From positions 1 through 37,449 of the forward strand of contig CAIVHJ010000381.1 of assembly GCA_903905665.1 (NCBI GenBank): a stretch of DNA of 37,449 bases, read 5' to 3'. Of this stretch, positions 1 through 5,618 are shown piece by piece. Position 1 is the first letter of the stretch. Each line of letters starts with the position of its first letter. Position numbers and translations under genes: made by a program. The notes under the pieces were generated by a model. The model was not told the origin of the DNA and did not search any database. It saw only the letters and a program-made list of their open reading frames with translations. Origin of the DNA: an uncultured Phycisphaerales bacterium. Its GTDB lineage: Bacteria > Planctomycetota > Phycisphaerae > UBA1845 > CAIVHJ01.

Positions 1-1766
1 ACATTTGGGTAAACGTAGTCAAAAACATCCATATCGGTGCGCATTTGTCGGTAGAACGAGGTGTGATCCCGATCAACAATGACGTAATCTGCGCCGAAGT
101 AATCACGGATATCTCTTAGATTGACATTAACGGTCACCATCTTTGGAGCCGGTGGGCGATGGTCTTTGACGATTGAAGACGTCGGCGATCTTCCCTGGGT
201 GATGACGCAGTAGCGTTCCCAGAGAATCGGGTCCAGCGTGTTGGAGAACTGAGGATCCAAACCGCAGACATAAGTGTTGTGGTCGTTGTAGTAGAAGTAG
301 TAAGGGAATACGTCCCAATCGTCTGCGAAAACGAGTGAGTCTTTGGGTGTTTGATCGTGGAGATAGTCCATGGCGGAGCGAATGTTCGGGATGTCGAAGT
401 CGCAGGTGGCCATTTTTTTGGAGTGGTAAAGAGTGATGGCGCCGGAGAGGCAGGCGACGAGGCAGGCGAACACATAACACCTTGTCGCCCAATGCGTTAT
501 GACTATTGCCGTGTCGGCCGTAGAGCTCGCGAGTCGGCATGAGAGTTGCCGGAGTCTGGAGTCGAAATTAGACCAGAGGGCGGCGGCGTTGAGGAGGCAG
601 AAGACGGGCCAGTACTCGATGAATCGGCGACTCTTCATGCAGAGAGCGAGGAAGCCGAGGTTGAGGAAGAAGAGGACGAGGTTGTTTGGTTCGAGGAGTC
701 TGGATTTCGTGAAGCGAAAGACGGCGCTGAGAGTGAAAATTGAGAGCGTAAATGCCGAAATTTCGAGCCAATAGTCGAGATTTATGGGGTTCCATTCGAC
801 GCCGACGCCGACTTTGCGAACATTGGAGAGTTGGAGGCCGGTATCAAAAATCTGGACTTTCAGGAATTCAAAGTTTTGGGGGAAATAGGGATGGGTGAAT
901 GTGGCGGCAAGCCATCCGATGAGGCTGAAACCGGCGATGCGCAAGACTTGGCGAGTAGGAACTCGCGCCAGCAAGTAGCCGACGACAACTGTGCCAATGA
1001 CGATCGGGAAGAAAACATAACAGCCGAGATAAATGTGGCCGGCGAGAAATCCAAACAAGATGAGCCAGCGAGGGCGATTCACCATGCAGAGATAAACAGA
1101 GAAAAGCAGAATTGCGAGGCAGGCGACCGGGGCGCGGATGTAGGACATTCGGAGATAAAAATCGGTGGGGAGGGCGAGAATGGCGAGAAGCCAGAAGAGG
1201 CGGAAACTGGCGTTTAGGTGCCTCAGAATGAGAGCAATGACGGTGGTCGAGAGGCCGAAGAGGATGACGTTGAGGAATTTTCCGGCGAGGAGGTCGGGAT
1301 AGTCAAGCCAGCCGCGAATCCATGTTCTGAATCCTTCGAGATGGGGGTTGGCGGAATCGAGTTCCATCTTGCTGGGTACGTACGACGCCCAGCGGTGAAG
1401 GGAATCGGGCATGAGGTGTGCGAGCCAAGTGGAAACCTCGACGACGGGCAGCAGGAGAATATGGAAACCCGTGTGGTGGCTGACGAAGTGGTCGTAGAGG
1501 ATGGTGTGTCGGAGCCACTTAAAGGTTTGGGGGAAGCCAAGTTCGGGCAGCATTTTCGTCATTTTGATGTGGTAGAACGAGTCTCGGTCGGAGGGTTCGT
1601 AGGAGCCGGATTGGACGTAGGCCATGGCGAGGCAGCCGAGCATGAAAGCGATCCAGAGTTCGTGATGGCGGAACCACTGGGTGGAAAAAGAAGTTGAAAG
1701 AGGGAGTTCGGGAGTTGAAACAGGTTTAGGGGTTGGGGGAGACGGATTCCGACGATTGCTTGCCAT
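1..1766 (-). CDS. Multi-pass membrane protein, probably a GT-C/PMT-like glycosyltransferase; 3' end truncated by the window edge
   Basis: Manual translation of the minus strand from ATG at 1766 stays open to position 1: MASNRRNPSPPTPKP...SYEPSDRDSFYHIKMTKMLPELGFPQTFKWLRHTILYDHFVSHHTGFHILLLPVVEV...LFGFLAGHIYLGCYVFFPIVIGTVVVGYLLARV... Many hydrophobic segments. Absent from the ORF track because there is no stop codon in the window. Confidence 0.75.
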   Translation of the reverse strand, partial: MASNRRNPSPPTPKPVSTPELPLSTSFSTQWFRHHELWIAFMLGCLAMAYVQSGSYEPSDRDSFYHIKMTKMLPELGFPQTFKWLRHTILYDHFVSHHTGFHILLLPVVEVSTWLAHLMPDSLHRWASYVPSKMELDSANPHLEGFRTWIRGWLDYPDLLAGKFLNVILFGLSTTVIALILRHLNASFRLFWLLAILALPTDFYLRMSYIRAPVACLAILLFSVYLCMVNRPRWLILFGFLAGHIYLGCYVFFPIVIGTVVVGYLLARVPTRQVLRIAGFSLIGWLAATFTHPYFPQNFEFLKVQIFDTGLQLSNVRKVGVGVEWNPINLDYWLEISAFTLSIFTLSAVFRFTKSRLLEPNNLVLFFLNLGFLALCMKSRRFIEYWPVFCLLNAAALWSNFDSRLRQLSCRLASSTADTAIVITHWATRCYVFACLVACLSGAITLYHSKKMATCDFDIPNIRSAMDYLHDQTPKDSLVFADDWDVFPYYFYYNDHNTYVCGLDPQFSNTLDPILWERYCVITQGRSPTSSIVKDHRPPAPKMVTVNVNLRDIRDYFGADYVIVDRDHTSFYRQMRTDMDVFDYVYPN

Positions 1767-2056: not shown

Positions 2057-2878
2057 ATGACAGATGAACAGGTCTACGAACTGAAGATTAGCGACATCGA
2101 GATTTCTGATGAGAACGTTCGGAGCAAGGTCGCGGTTGACGATGAACTCAAAGAACTAGCGGAAAGCATCAAACTTCTCAACCAACTTCAGCCGGTCGTG
2201 CTGCGAGGGGATCACGGGAAGCCACCCTATGAGCTCATCATTGGGCAGCGTCGCTTCACCGCCATGAAGAAAATACTTAATAAGAAGACAATCAAGGCAG
2301 TTTTTGCGGGTACGATGACTGATACCAACGCCAAAATTAGATCCTTGGTTGAGAATATGTGTCGGGCAGAACTAAGCTACGAGGATACTGCCGACGCCGT
2401 CACAGAATTGTATAAAGCGAATGGGCGGGATGACCGAAAGGTCGCCAAGGTCACAGGGTTAGCTTTGAGGCATGTGCGCCAATATATCTACATCAAGGAG
2501 CGAGCATCTGACGCGATGAAAAAGAAGATGAGAGATCGGAAAGTCACGCCGGCAGATGTTCACCGTGCACTCAAAGCCGCATCTGATGATGTGGCCAAAG
2601 CGGACGAGTTAGTAAACCTCATAGAGAAACACAAGCTCGACAGTCATCAGAAGAAGCGTCTCGTCGAGATTGGAGAGCAACATCCAAGGATGTCAGCGGA
2701 GGAGATATTCAAGAGAGCACAGCCACCCGCACTAGAGGAGAACCTCGTCGTACGGCTCCCGGAACGGATACGAAAGGCTTTGGTCACAGCCGCCGACGAG
2801 CTCGCAATGGCCCCAGACGAGTTAGCGGCCAAGGCGCTCGAAGAGTGGCTTTCTACGAAGGGTTTCATGTCTAAATGA
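2057..2878 (+). CDS. ParB/Spo0J-like N-terminal domain protein with central HTH and C-terminal ribbon-helix-helix-like tail
   Basis: The ORF opens at 2036, but ATG 2057 is preceded by a GGGGG purine run. Motifs: LKISDIEISDENVR, IIGQRRFTAMKK (ParB box II-like), LVENMCRAELSYEDTADAVTEL; C-terminus VVRLPERIRKALVTAADELAMAPDELAAKALEEWL. Confidence 0.85.
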   Translation: MTDEQVYELKISDIEISDENVRSKVAVDDELKELAESIKLLNQLQPVVLRGDHGKPPYELIIGQRRFTAMKKILNKKTIKAVFAGTMTDTNAKIRSLVENMCRAELSYEDTADAVTELYKANGRDDRKVAKVTGLALRHVRQYIYIKERASDAMKKKMRDRKVTPADVHRALKAASDDVAKADELVNLIEKHKLDSHQKKRLVEIGEQHPRMSAEEIFKRAQPPALEENLVVRLPERIRKALVTAADELAMAPDELAAKALEEWLSTKGFMSK

Positions 2879-3564
2879 AGCAGGCATTTCCATCCCTAAG
2901 CCGCAAAGACGAAAGACGTCTTAACGAGGCGTTGGCCGCGTTGATTGCCAACACACGCAGAGGCAAGCGGAAGCTGACTCTCGTGGAGTTTGTCGAGTAT
3001 CTGCGGGTGGCTGAGAAATTGCTCGGAAACCTGCGTAAGGTGGCAGAGAGAATTAGCTTATCAGAGGAAATGGTTCGCCAATTTACCCGGGTCGAGAAGT
3101 TATCTCCTCCCGTCAGGAGGTTGGCGGCAAGTGGGGAACTGAGCAGCGTAGATATTGCCGATCGCCTAAGCCGACTTCCAACAGACGATCAGCTTATGGT
3201 CGCTCGAGGAATACTAGCGGGCAAACTCACACCATATGACCTGCGAGCAATCTTGGCCTTGCGCAAGACTACACCGCGGACCCCAATCAGAAAAATCATT
3301 GATAGGATAATAAGCTCCAGGAACATCAGGGTATATCTGGCTGAGTTTGTGGTACCTGAACCGCCAGTGCCTGATTCCATCATCATGGGGCGGATATCGC
3401 GCGCACTCGGGCGCGGACATGTGAAGCGAGTGGAAACATCTGGTAGATTCGGCCGAGTCGTCCTCGACGATGAGGGGAAAATAGCCCTCGAACAAAGTGC
3501 AAGGAAGGAGCGAATCACAAAATGGGAACTCCTTCATCGCCTGGTTCGCGGGGAGGTGCGCTAA
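2875..3564 (+). CDS. ParB central-HTH-like DNA-binding protein without the N-terminal ParB domain
   Basis: ATGA overlap with the upstream ORF. KVAERISLSEEMVRQFTRVEKLSPPVRRLAASGELSSVDIADRLSRLP...GKLTPYDLRAIL resembles the ParB/KorB HTH region. C-terminus ALEQSARKERITKWELLHRLV. Confidence 0.6.
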   Translation: MKQAFPSLSRKDERRLNEALAALIANTRRGKRKLTLVEFVEYLRVAEKLLGNLRKVAERISLSEEMVRQFTRVEKLSPPVRRLAASGELSSVDIADRLSRLPTDDQLMVARGILAGKLTPYDLRAILALRKTTPRTPIRKIIDRIISSRNIRVYLAEFVVPEPPVPDSIIMGRISRALGRGHVKRVETSGRFGRVVLDDEGKIALEQSARKERITKWELLHRLVRGEVR

Positions 3565-3565
3565 T

Positions 3566-4222
3566 ATGTCGGCGACTGTTGCAGCGAAGAAACGGACCGG
3601 CGTCGGGGCGATTCTCGAGATGGAAGAGTTCGAACGCTTGGCTGGGGAGCTGCGCCCTTGGCGCAAAAGCGACGATCTGGAAGTTATCGAGAAGGCGAAG
3701 GGTTCAGCGTTGGTGTTTCCGTTTGTGAAGGGATTACGCCTCTCCGCACGCCTCATCTACATCCTCCGAGCACATCTGTCAGAGACGAATCTGGAAGTGG
3801 ATTGGGGACAGCTTCTGAACGATCAAGGTGACTCTTGCTCACCGGAATGTGACATCATCATCCACCACAAAGGTTTCCATCGGGAATGGAATGACCACAA
3901 GAATCCGGTTATGCACTTCCGATTCATCAAAGGCGAAAAGGCCGTGGCAGTTGTCAGCTGCAAATCCTACGCGGACCGTGTGGATACTGGTTACGCCAAG
4001 AAACTGCATCACTACGTCAAGAACGTCTTACTATTCGCGGAATGCTGCGCTCCTGGACGGGTTAATTCTTTGCGCAAGAAGGCTAAGGCCGCCGGATACA
4101 CGGGCTTTTGGCATCTTTACACGTATGATGACAAATCAGGTTCCTGCATCAACGATCCCGATACTTGGACCGACTTTTTACGGACTGTCATATCCATCAC
4201 TAGGCGGGCGAAAGAGCGATGA
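3566..4222 (+). CDS. Uncharacterised protein, possibly a PD-(D/E)XK-like (DUF6602-like) domain
   Basis: ATG 3566 lies one nucleotide after the upstream TAA. Motif SPECDIIIHHKG...KAVAVVSCKSY resembles the D...(E/S)xK layout of PD-(D/E)XK folds. 218 aa. Confidence 0.55.
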   Translation: MSATVAAKKRTGVGAILEMEEFERLAGELRPWRKSDDLEVIEKAKGSALVFPFVKGLRLSARLIYILRAHLSETNLEVDWGQLLNDQGDSCSPECDIIIHHKGFHREWNDHKNPVMHFRFIKGEKAVAVVSCKSYADRVDTGYAKKLHHYVKNVLLFAECCAPGRVNSLRKKAKAAGYTGFWHLYTYDDKSGSCINDPDTWTDFLRTVISITRRAKER

Positions 4223-5235
4223 GTAATACATACAACAACGACCGCAATAACGGCTCCCGAACCTTCGATGTTGCATGGGGTGAGGTCGCCTTGTTGATCA
4301 CGACTAAGAGACTGCGCGGGCTTACAGTAAAGTGCCCGGACTGTGGACGCAAAGGCCTGGCATTCTCTAAGTGGATTAAAGGGGTCACGCAGAAACCGCT
4401 CTATTTGTGCCATCAGGAGAGGACTGGATCACTCGGAACGTGCGAACTAGACGATCTACAGTCGAAGCAAGTCAAGAATTCAATTACCATTACTAGAGAC
4501 GATATTCGCAAGCTCTTGAGGATGGGAAGGTGTTTTGTCCTCTTCAGCGGGGGAAAAGACAGCCTTTGTTTGCTCGAATACATGCGAGGGCTTGCCGCTA
4601 CCGATGGTAGAGAAATAACGGCCATCCACGCGAACACCACCGCTGGGTTTCCCGAAGTGGAACAGTATGTCGAGCGGGTATGCAAGGACCTCGGAGTAGC
4701 GCTCCACACGGTTCATCCTGATCGAGATTTTTTCGAGACCGCCAAACGGTGGGGTATTCCAAGTCCTCGATCGCGATGGTGTTGTGAGACGCTTAAAGTG
4801 GCACCGATCAGAAGATTCCTGGCGGGCATAGAGGGCCCCAAACTCATCTTTGATGGAATTCGTGCTGCCGAGTCAAGTATGCGATCAACCTACACGCCTG
4901 TCTGGTATCATCCTGCATTTCGATGCATTAGCGTAAGCCCCATCTTCTACTGGTCTAATGAGAAAGTGCATGATTACATAGCAAAACACAACCTTCCACA
5001 AAGCCCAGCATCCAAGCTCAACATGTCTGCAGAGTGTTGGTGTGGTGCCTACCAGGACAGGGAAGACTTCGAGGCCCTTCTAAGCGTTCACCCGGAAATT
5101 TTCGAAAAGTTGGTGGCCGTCGAGAAGGCTCAGCGGGGTAAGTATACCTTCGTTTTCGAGAAGGGACAGCAAGTGCCGCTAGTGCAGATACGCAAGCAAG
5201 CCAACGTCTGCGCGAGGGCGCTGGGGCGTTCATAA
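4219..5235 (+). CDS. Phosphoadenosine phosphosulfate reductase family protein (DndC/IbrA-like) with N-terminal zinc ribbon
   Basis: ATGA overlap with the upstream ORF. CPDCGRKGLAFSKW...LCHQE...C zinc-ribbon-like; FVLFSGGKDSLCLLEY PP-loop; RWCCETLKVAPIRRFL; ECWCGAYQDREDF cysteine motif. Confidence 0.88.
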   Translation: MSNTYNNDRNNGSRTFDVAWGEVALLITTKRLRGLTVKCPDCGRKGLAFSKWIKGVTQKPLYLCHQERTGSLGTCELDDLQSKQVKNSITITRDDIRKLLRMGRCFVLFSGGKDSLCLLEYMRGLAATDGREITAIHANTTAGFPEVEQYVERVCKDLGVALHTVHPDRDFFETAKRWGIPSPRSRWCCETLKVAPIRRFLAGIEGPKLIFDGIRAAESSMRSTYTPVWYHPAFRCISVSPIFYWSNEKVHDYIAKHNLPQSPASKLNMSAECWCGAYQDREDFEALLSVHPEIFEKLVAVEKAQRGKYTFVFEKGQQVPLVQIRKQANVCARALGRS

Positions 5236-5360
5236 CCCGGCCTTGTATCCATCACCTACGTATCCATCAACTGGTACTGTACCTAGGCGTCCTGTACCAC
5301 CCAGTGCGAAGCCCGGAATCAACATACCCATAGTGCGGCGCTGGTATTCGGGGTTCGTAA

Positions 5361-5527
5361 AACTTCGACGACTGGCAGCAGGAGAATATGGAAACCTGTG
5401 TGGTGGCTGACGAAGTGATCGTAGAGGATCGTGTGGCGGAGCCACTTAAAGGTGTGGGGGAAGCCTAGTTCTGGCAGCATCTTGGTCATTTTGATGTGGT
5501 AAAACGAATCGCGGTCGGAGGGTTCGT
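5361..5527 (-). pseudogene. Diverged fragment of the 1-1766 type membrane protein gene
   Basis: Ungapped alignment of 5361-5527 with 1434-1600 (constant offset 3927), about 14 mismatches in 167 bp by hand count. Encodes PSDRDSFYHIKMTKMLPELGFPHTFKWLRHTILYDHFVSHHTGFHILLLPVVEV. Confidence 0.88.
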
Positions 5528-5618
5528 CGGGGGGAGGGGCCAGTTGCTCATGGTAAACACGGGCTGCTGGCCCCTTTAGTACTGTACGATCACCTCTCAA
5601 CCTTATGGGCCGACCGGG

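What the first reader, a model, noticed from the sequence alone, without database searches (positions are those of the whole stretch)
2057..5235. Four-gene ParB / ParB-HTH / PD-(D/E)XK-like / PAPS-reductase operon: candidate undescribed DNA-modification, defence or mobile-element system
Seen directly: four same-strand genes joined by ATGA, TAA-T-ATG and ATGA junctions, which implies obligate co-expression. The first carries ParB motifs (GQRRFTAMK, ENMCRAELSYEDTADAV). The last carries SGGKDS, RWCC and CWC motifs of the PAPS reductase/DndC type. Established: ParB-like plus PAPS-reductase pairs occur as IbrB/IbrA-type genes in phages and islands, and DndC in phosphorothioation systems is a PAPS-reductase relative. 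Here there is no DndA, DndD or DndE in the operon, and two extra genes, including a possible nuclease fold. Inference: a sulfur- or nucleotide-dependent modification or restriction module, or a regulatory module of a mobile element. Function is not demonstrated.
Basis: partly seen in the sequence, partly recalled or inferred. Interest (0 to 1): 0.82.

Follow-up and report, generated by a model that had tools for sequence, protein, structure and literature searches.

The report
Conserved four-gene ParB–sulfurtransferase cassette
Four overlapping bacterial genes (two DNA-binding partition-type proteins, a nuclease-like protein that seems to have lost its cutting residues, and a sulfur-handling enzyme of a virus-related type) travel together as a rare, apparently undescribed unit in three distantly related genomes, so they probably form one DNA-acting machine whose function is still untested.

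Summary
In detail: four same-strand genes at 2057-5235 with ATGA, TAA-T-ATG and ATGA junctions. The same four orthologous genes, in the same order and equally tight, recur in two further genomes of the phylum (another class, two families), at unrelated loci. In phylum samples of 326-393 genomes the profiles of genes 2, 3 and 4 matched only inside these cassettes. It is a genuine conserved module, but rare. P1 is a Noc/ParB-type CTPase-fold protein with its motifs kept. P2 is a ParB-type DNA-binding domain without the CTPase domain. P3 belongs with DUF6602/NucC nucleases, but the two catalytic glutamates invariant in nine relatives are replaced in all three copies, so it is probably a pseudo-nuclease. 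P4 is a PP-loop, PAPS-reductase-like protein with a zinc-ribbon-like N-terminus and CC...CxC cysteines; its nearest relatives are archaeal-virus and phage proteins, not CysH, DndC or SspD. No Dnd or Ssp partner lies beside the cassettes. Best mechanism, inferred only: a ParB-clamp-guided sulfur- or adenylate-transfer machine acting on DNA, for marking or local gene control. Restriction by P3 is now less likely. Function is untested. Verdict: new variant of a known kind (ParB plus PAPS-reductase-like modules).

The parts
2057..2878 (+). P1: ParB/Noc-type protein, 273 aa: CTPase-fold N-domain (LQP, GQRR, ENMCRAEL motifs), HTH, C-terminal tail with a ribbon-helix-helix-like pattern; no ParA gene beside it
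   Evidence: Pfam ParB_N 6.5e-12; TIGR00180 5.6e-19 over cut-off; Noc 7ng0 3.4e-23 with the 3-sequence profile; RHH-like tail is a reading by eye only
2875..3564 (+). P2: CTPase-less ParB-type DNA-binding protein, 229 aa, homologous to the HTH half of P1
   Evidence: HTH_ParB in 2 of 3 members, best 5.2e-7; hhalign P1 vs P2 E 1.2e-6 over 116 columns; single-sequence AF2 model (pLDDT 63) whose best 31 PDB matches are ParB, Noc or KorB structures, TMt 0.71-0.73 to the isolated Noc DNA-binding domain 6y93
3566..4222 (+). P3: NucC/DUF6602-type PD-(D/E)XK-fold protein, 218 aa, degenerate active site (D96 and K133 kept; NucC E39 and E104 replaced by S60 and S131)
   Evidence: DUF6602 in 3 of 3 members, best 1.9e-6; Serratia NucC 7zgv 0.0046; hhalign to 9 NucC/DUF6602 proteins E 1.3e-7; residue comparison
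4219..5235 (+). P4: PP-loop PAPS-reductase-like protein, 338 aa, zinc-ribbon-like N-terminus, SGGKDS, RWCC and CWC cysteine motifs
   Evidence: PF01507 6.5e-26; BrxP 1.6e-23, SspD 5.2e-21, DndC 2.8e-6; phage family phrog_424 3.1e-35; tree and motif table
1433..1603 (.). Left copy of a 171-nt direct repeat, inside the gene of a large membrane protein (gene X, minus strand, 1766 to beyond 1)
5360..5530 (.). Right copy of the 171-nt direct repeat, an isolated fragment (about 56 codons) of a gene X homologue (91% nt; 13 silent against 2 replacement codons)

Best explanation
The four genes are one accessory module encoding a multi-protein machine that acts on DNA. P1, a ParB/Noc-type CTPase-fold protein, loads at a recognition site, perhaps as a CTP-gated clamp. 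P2, a ParB DNA-binding domain without the CTPase part, gives or modulates site recognition. P3, a NucC/DUF6602-fold protein with a degenerate catalytic centre, holds DNA or P4 rather than cutting. P4, a PP-loop ATP-pyrophosphatase with cysteine motifs, activates a phosphate or base with ATP and transfers sulfur (or otherwise modifies the target), drawing sulfur from the housekeeping cysteine desulfurase. The outcome would be a local DNA mark or switch used for self-recognition or gene control. Shown: domain identities, conserved linkage, co-occurrence, kept CTPase-fold and PP-loop motifs, lost P3 glutamates. Inferred: complex formation, CTP clamping, DNA as the substrate, sulfur as the atom transferred, and the biological purpose.
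For: Same four genes, same order and tight junctions in G000, G602 and G441 (pairwise homology). P4 profile: 3 of 393 genomes, all cassettes; P3 and P2 profiles: 2 of 326 genomes each, only the cassettes. Two of the four proteins are ParB-type DNA-binding proteins. P4 is PP-loop/PAPS-reductase-like with CC...CxC, outside CysH (no ECGxH). Known sulfur modification of DNA uses a PAPS-reductase-like protein plus an ATPase plus a DNA-recognition or nicking protein, with the desulfurase sometimes encoded elsewhere (PMC12707154), which matches P4 + P1 + P2/P3 in kind.
Against: No DndD/SspC-type ATPase, DndE or SspB lies in or beside any cassette; DUF4007 (SspB-type) is not found in the three genomes, although that search had no positive control. 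P3's catalytic glutamates are missing, so no nicking activity is evident. P4's nearest relatives are viral proteins of unknown function. No assay, no reliable P3 structure, and only three members known.
Confidence: 0.35

Rival explanations
1. An IbrA/IbrB-like regulatory module: the ParB-type proteins and the PAPS-reductase-like protein together switch transcription of a target gene or element, without covalent DNA modification.
For: ParB plus PAPS-reductase-like pairs are annotated as IbrB/IbrA, co-activators of prophage gene expression, in phages and mobile elements (PMC4490671, PMC8813620). Two of the four proteins are DNA-binding; P3 looks catalytically dead.
Against: No conserved target gene or shared upstream palindrome between the window and G602 loci. 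P4 keeps an intact PP-loop and conserved cysteines, suggesting catalysis. No IbrA or IbrB sequence was compared directly.
Confidence: 0.22
2. An anti-phage restriction module in which P3 is an active nuclease triggered when P1/P2/P4 detect foreign or unmarked DNA.
For: P3 belongs with NucC/DUF6602 nucleases, a family that includes a CBASS effector; related P4 folds occur in BREX type 4 and Ssp systems.
Against: E39 and E104 of NucC, invariant in 9 of 9 relatives, are replaced in 3 of 3 cassette copies (S60/S131 in the window; QVR in G441). No defence genes seen next to any of the three copies.
Confidence: 0.15
3. A partition, maintenance or nucleoid-occlusion remnant of a mobile element: P1/P2 are segregation-type proteins and P3/P4 are passengers.
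For: P1 is closest to Noc/ParB; no ParA is needed for Noc-type proteins. The cassette has lower GC3 than most of its neighbours and a flanking repeat.
Against: All four genes are kept together in three unrelated chromosomal places without integrase, replication or ParA genes; passengers would be expected to separate.
Confidence: 0.1
4. A nucleotide-pool or RNA (tRNA) thiolation enzyme cassette in which the ParB fold acts as an NTPase rather than a DNA clamp.
For: PP-loop proteins include tRNA thiolases (TtcA, TtuA hits); ParB folds can bind other NTPs (PMC12704722).
Against: P1 and P2 both carry ParB-type DNA-binding HTH domains, odd for an RNA or nucleotide enzyme.
Confidence: 0.1

Closest known systems
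Ssp system (SspABCD) and Dnd system (DndABCDE), DNA phosphorothioation
   Same: A PAPS-reductase-like PP-loop protein (SspD/DndC) encoded with an NTP-binding and a DNA-recognition partner; ParB-fold DndB occurs in many Dnd loci (PMC10853773, PMC12707154)
   Different: No desulfurase, no DndD/SspC ATPase, no DndE/SspB; P4 has CC...CxC instead of the SspD CxxC; P1 is a Noc/ParB protein rather than DndB; DndC profile match is weak
BrxP of type 4 BREX
   Same: Best defence-library match of P4 (1.6e-23) and the same RWCC motif
   Different: BrxP carries extra domains and ferredoxin-like cysteines (PMC12839542); no PglZ, BrxC or other BREX gene beside the cassette; CxC instead of CxxC
IbrA/IbrB-type ParB plus PAPS-reductase-like pairs
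   Same: Combination of ParB-fold and PAPS-reductase-like proteins; a ParB-PAPS fusion was seen in G538
   Different: Four genes, not two; P1 has full ParB HTH architecture; no counterpart of P2 or P3 is known to me there
Viral PAPS-reductase-like proteins (phrog_424; ATSV, SBRV1, HFTV1, ChewyVIII)
   Same: Share the CxC motif and branch nearest P4 (moderate support); phage ChewyVIII places one directly after a PD-(D/E)XK gene
   Different: No ParB/P2/P3 partners seen at the viral loci examined; P4 has an added zinc-ribbon-like N-terminus
NucC/DUF6602 endonucleases
   Same: Homologous to P3 (hhalign 1.3e-7; DUF6602 in all three)
   Different: P3 lacks the two catalytic glutamates and has cassette-specific conserved cysteines (C95, C160, C161)

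Membership tests
ParB/Noc CTPase-fold proteins (P1) | ParB_N domain with GxRR and ENxxR motifs followed by ParB-type HTH | tested here: met
   PF02195 6.5e-12, TIGR00180 over cut-off; GQRR and ENxxR in all three; Noc structures 3.4e-23
ParB/Noc CTPase-fold proteins (P1) | CTP binding and clamp formation | not testable with these tools
   motifs kept; no biochemistry
ParB/Noc CTPase-fold proteins (P1) | Canonical ParAB partition: ParA gene beside it and parS sites | tested here: not met
   no ParA gene seen in the three loci; no good parS or Noc-site match near the cassette
PD-(D/E)XK nuclease, NucC/DUF6602 (P3) | Sequence kinship to NucC/DUF6602 | tested here: met
   (the window copy alone is below Pfam's gathering score)
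PD-(D/E)XK nuclease, NucC/DUF6602 (P3) | Catalytic residues D73, E104, K106 (and E39), E. coli NucC numbering | tested here: not met
   invariant in 9 of 9 relatives; P3 has D96 and K133 (R in G441) but S60 and S131 (Q in G441); that these residues are catalytic in NucC is from my own knowledge
PAPS reductase superfamily PF01507 (P4) | Domain score above gathering cut-off and SGGKDS PP-loop | tested here: met
   91.8 bits against 22.5; SGGKDS at residue 110
Assimilatory CysH | Score over TIGR00434/PRK02090 cut-offs and ECGxH active-site cysteine | tested here: not met
   44 against 165.1 and 63.5 against 154 bits; no ECGxH in any P4
SspD / Ssp system | SspD gene with SspA, SspB (DUF4007) and SspC neighbours | tested here: not met
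   absent beside all three cassettes; present beside plasmid SspD genes; DUF4007 not found in the three genomes but without positive control
DndC / Dnd system | DndC equivalog score and DndD/DndE neighbours | tested here: not met
   22.8 against 290.4 bits for TIGR03183; no such neighbours
DNA sulfur modification system | Sulfur-modified DNA in cells carrying the genes | not testable with these tools
   needs LC-MS
IbrA/IbrB module | Sequence kinship of P1 and P4 to IbrB and IbrA | not tested
   no verified IbrA/IbrB sequence was retrieved

The most novel reading that the evidence does not exclude
An undescribed DNA sulfur-modification system in which a ParB-type CTP clamp, paired with a CTPase-less ParB partner, replaces the ABC or Orc ATPase of Dnd/Ssp systems, and a NucC-fold pseudo-nuclease replaces the DNA-holding or nicking subunit, delivering a viral-type PP-loop/cysteine-cluster enzyme to specific sites.
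Probability: 0.17. Interest if true: 0.85.

Novelty: new variant of a known kind. Interest (0 to 1): 0.58.

Why it matters
ParB-fold and PAPS-reductase-like proteins recur together in phages, mobile elements and defence loci without an explained joint function. This cassette gives a compact, conserved four-gene version with intact CTPase-fold and PP-loop motifs, so the question of what such pairs do to DNA becomes testable by expressing 3.2 kb in a laboratory strain and measuring modified nucleotides.

Tried and rejected
Assimilatory CysH: rejected (scores far below cut-offs, no ECGxH). SspD or DndC membership: rejected (and neighbourhoods). Active restriction nuclease: weakened. Genome-contig scan with P3 gave one spurious antisense match (L003). 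Scans of viral contigs failed every time because the machine did not answer, so spread in viruses outside the phage collection is unknown. Single-sequence AF2 of P3 failed (pLDDT 36). Related loci from whole genomes were not sent to the structure predictor because its stated rule names other sources. No parS-like site or shared upstream palindrome. No described four-gene system found in the paper searches, which cover open-licence papers only.

Full report
Observation. The four genes are real and placed as described: g1 2057-2878, g2 2875-3564, g3 3566-4222, g4 4219-5235, with ATGA, TAA-T-ATG and ATGA junctions. Gene 1 starts at 2057 behind AAAGGGGG rather than at the longer ORF's 2036. All quoted motifs are present.

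Conservation. A whole-genome search with P4 found a 44% identical homologue in G441, of the same phylum but another class; the contig carries P1 (5' end cut by the contig edge), P2, P3 and P4 in the same order with an 11-nt overlap, a 1-nt overlap and a 7-nt gap. A profile search of that class found a third complete cassette in G602, another family. Identities to the window by tblastn (G602 and G441): P1 52 and 36%, P2 41 and 34%, P3 48 and 33%, P4 43 and 46%. Flanking genes differ: gene X and an EF-hand protein (window), DsbD-like and PlsY (G602), a heptosyltransferase (G441). In phylum samples, the P4 profile (E up to 1e-30) hit 3 of 393 genomes, and P3 (E up to 1e-3) and P2 (E up to 1e-8) hit 2 of 326 each, always these cassettes. 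The samples overlap and the profiles contain the three copies, so this shows co-occurrence and rarity within one phylum, not overall spread.

P1. Pfam, TIGR00180 and solved Noc/ParB structures agree; the LQP, GQRR and ENxxR motifs are in all three members. P1 has no ParA beside it. In G441 a second, canonical ParB exists, so P1 is an extra copy there. The canonical parB was not found in the G000 and G602 assemblies, which are incomplete.

P2. It matches the ParB HTH domain, aligns with the HTH half of P1 (E 1.2e-6), and a moderate-confidence model resembles Noc and ParB DNA-binding domains, although no Foldseek E-value is below 0.001. It lacks the CTPase-fold domain.

P3. DUF6602 is matched by 3 of 3 members (best 1.9e-6), Serratia NucC by the profile (0.0046), and an alignment of nine NucC/DUF6602 plasmid proteins by hhalign (1.3e-7). 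Those nine share G35, E39, P51, S69, D73, E104 and K106, E. coli NucC numbering. P3 keeps the G, S, D and, in two of three, K, but has S60 for E39 and S131 for E104 (Q in G441). Loss of metal-dependent cleavage is therefore predicted. Three invariant cysteines (C95, C160, C161) are specific to the cassette; whether they bind metal or relay sulfur is speculation.

P4. It has the PP-loop and the PAPS-reductase domain, an N-terminal CPxC...C zinc-ribbon-like stretch, RWCC and CWC. A 17-protein tree groups the three P4 copies (83/90) and places them with archaeal virus ATSV and phage or halovirus proteins (86/89, an open fork); SspD proteins form a separate group (100/100). Long branches make this placement tentative. 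The CxC motif is shared with the viral proteins, whereas SspD and BrxP have CxxC and CysH has ECGxH. Kinship to CysH, SspD and DndC is at superfamily level only. PAPS-reductase-like proteins are noted in phages, archaeal viruses, type IV-B CRISPR, type 4 BREX and phosphorothioation loci, with function open (PMC11437467).

Mechanism. Known phosphorothioation combines a PAPS-reductase-like enzyme, an ATPase and a DNA-recognition or nicking protein, with the desulfurase sometimes elsewhere (PMC12707154). The cassette offers the same kinds of parts, with a ParB-type NTP switch in place of the ATPase. That is an analogy, not membership: the defining Dnd and Ssp genes were looked for beside the cassettes and not found. 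The strongest rival is an IbrA/IbrB-like regulatory role (PMC4490671, PMC8813620). The survey of ParB-CTPase folds (PMC12704722) holds no mention of PAPS in its main text.

Mobility. Cassette GC3 (0.56-0.62) is lower than most neighbours (0.64-0.70; the EF-hand gene is 0.59). A 171-nt direct repeat brackets the cassette: the right copy is a fragment of a gene X homologue differing at 13 silent and 2 replacement codons, which suggests it came from a functional homologue rather than from a decaying duplicate. P3 was not found in 60 relatives, including two of the same family. In those two, gene X sits next to a ParB gene with an LGRG-type motif. Acquisition by recombination is likely; the route is unknown.

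Limits. Three members from one phylum; viral-contig scans unavailable; other phyla not sampled by whole genome; no reliable P3 structure; paper library restricted to open licences; no experiment.

Noticed in passing
window 1433-1603 and 5360-5530: 171-nt direct repeat (91%) bracketing the cassette; the right copy is an isolated fragment of a homologue of membrane-protein gene X with mostly silent differences, a possible footprint of acquisition.
   Followed up: partly
window 3-1766 (minus); L048 1373-4805; L049 804-3911: In two same-family genomes gene X lies next to a canonical-looking parB (LGRG motif), so the cassette with its own ParB-type genes seems to sit beside the chromosomal parB locus.
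   Followed up: partly
L009 2619-4744 (Rhodococcus phage ChewyVIII): A PD-(D/E)XK nuclease gene overlaps a viral-type PAPS-reductase-like gene, with a DNA methylase and an AAA-ATPase nearby.
   Followed up: no
L016 1164-2348 (G538): A single protein fusing a ParB-like domain to a PAPS-reductase-like domain.
   Followed up: no
L015 1034-3322 (G381): A BrxP-like protein with ferredoxin-like cysteines in another genome of the phylum, next to an ATPase gene: probably a type 4 BREX locus.
   Followed up: no
P3: C95, C160, C161 (window 3566-4222): Three cysteines invariant in the cassette P3 proteins, one beside the retained active-site Asp; role unexplained.
   Followed up: no
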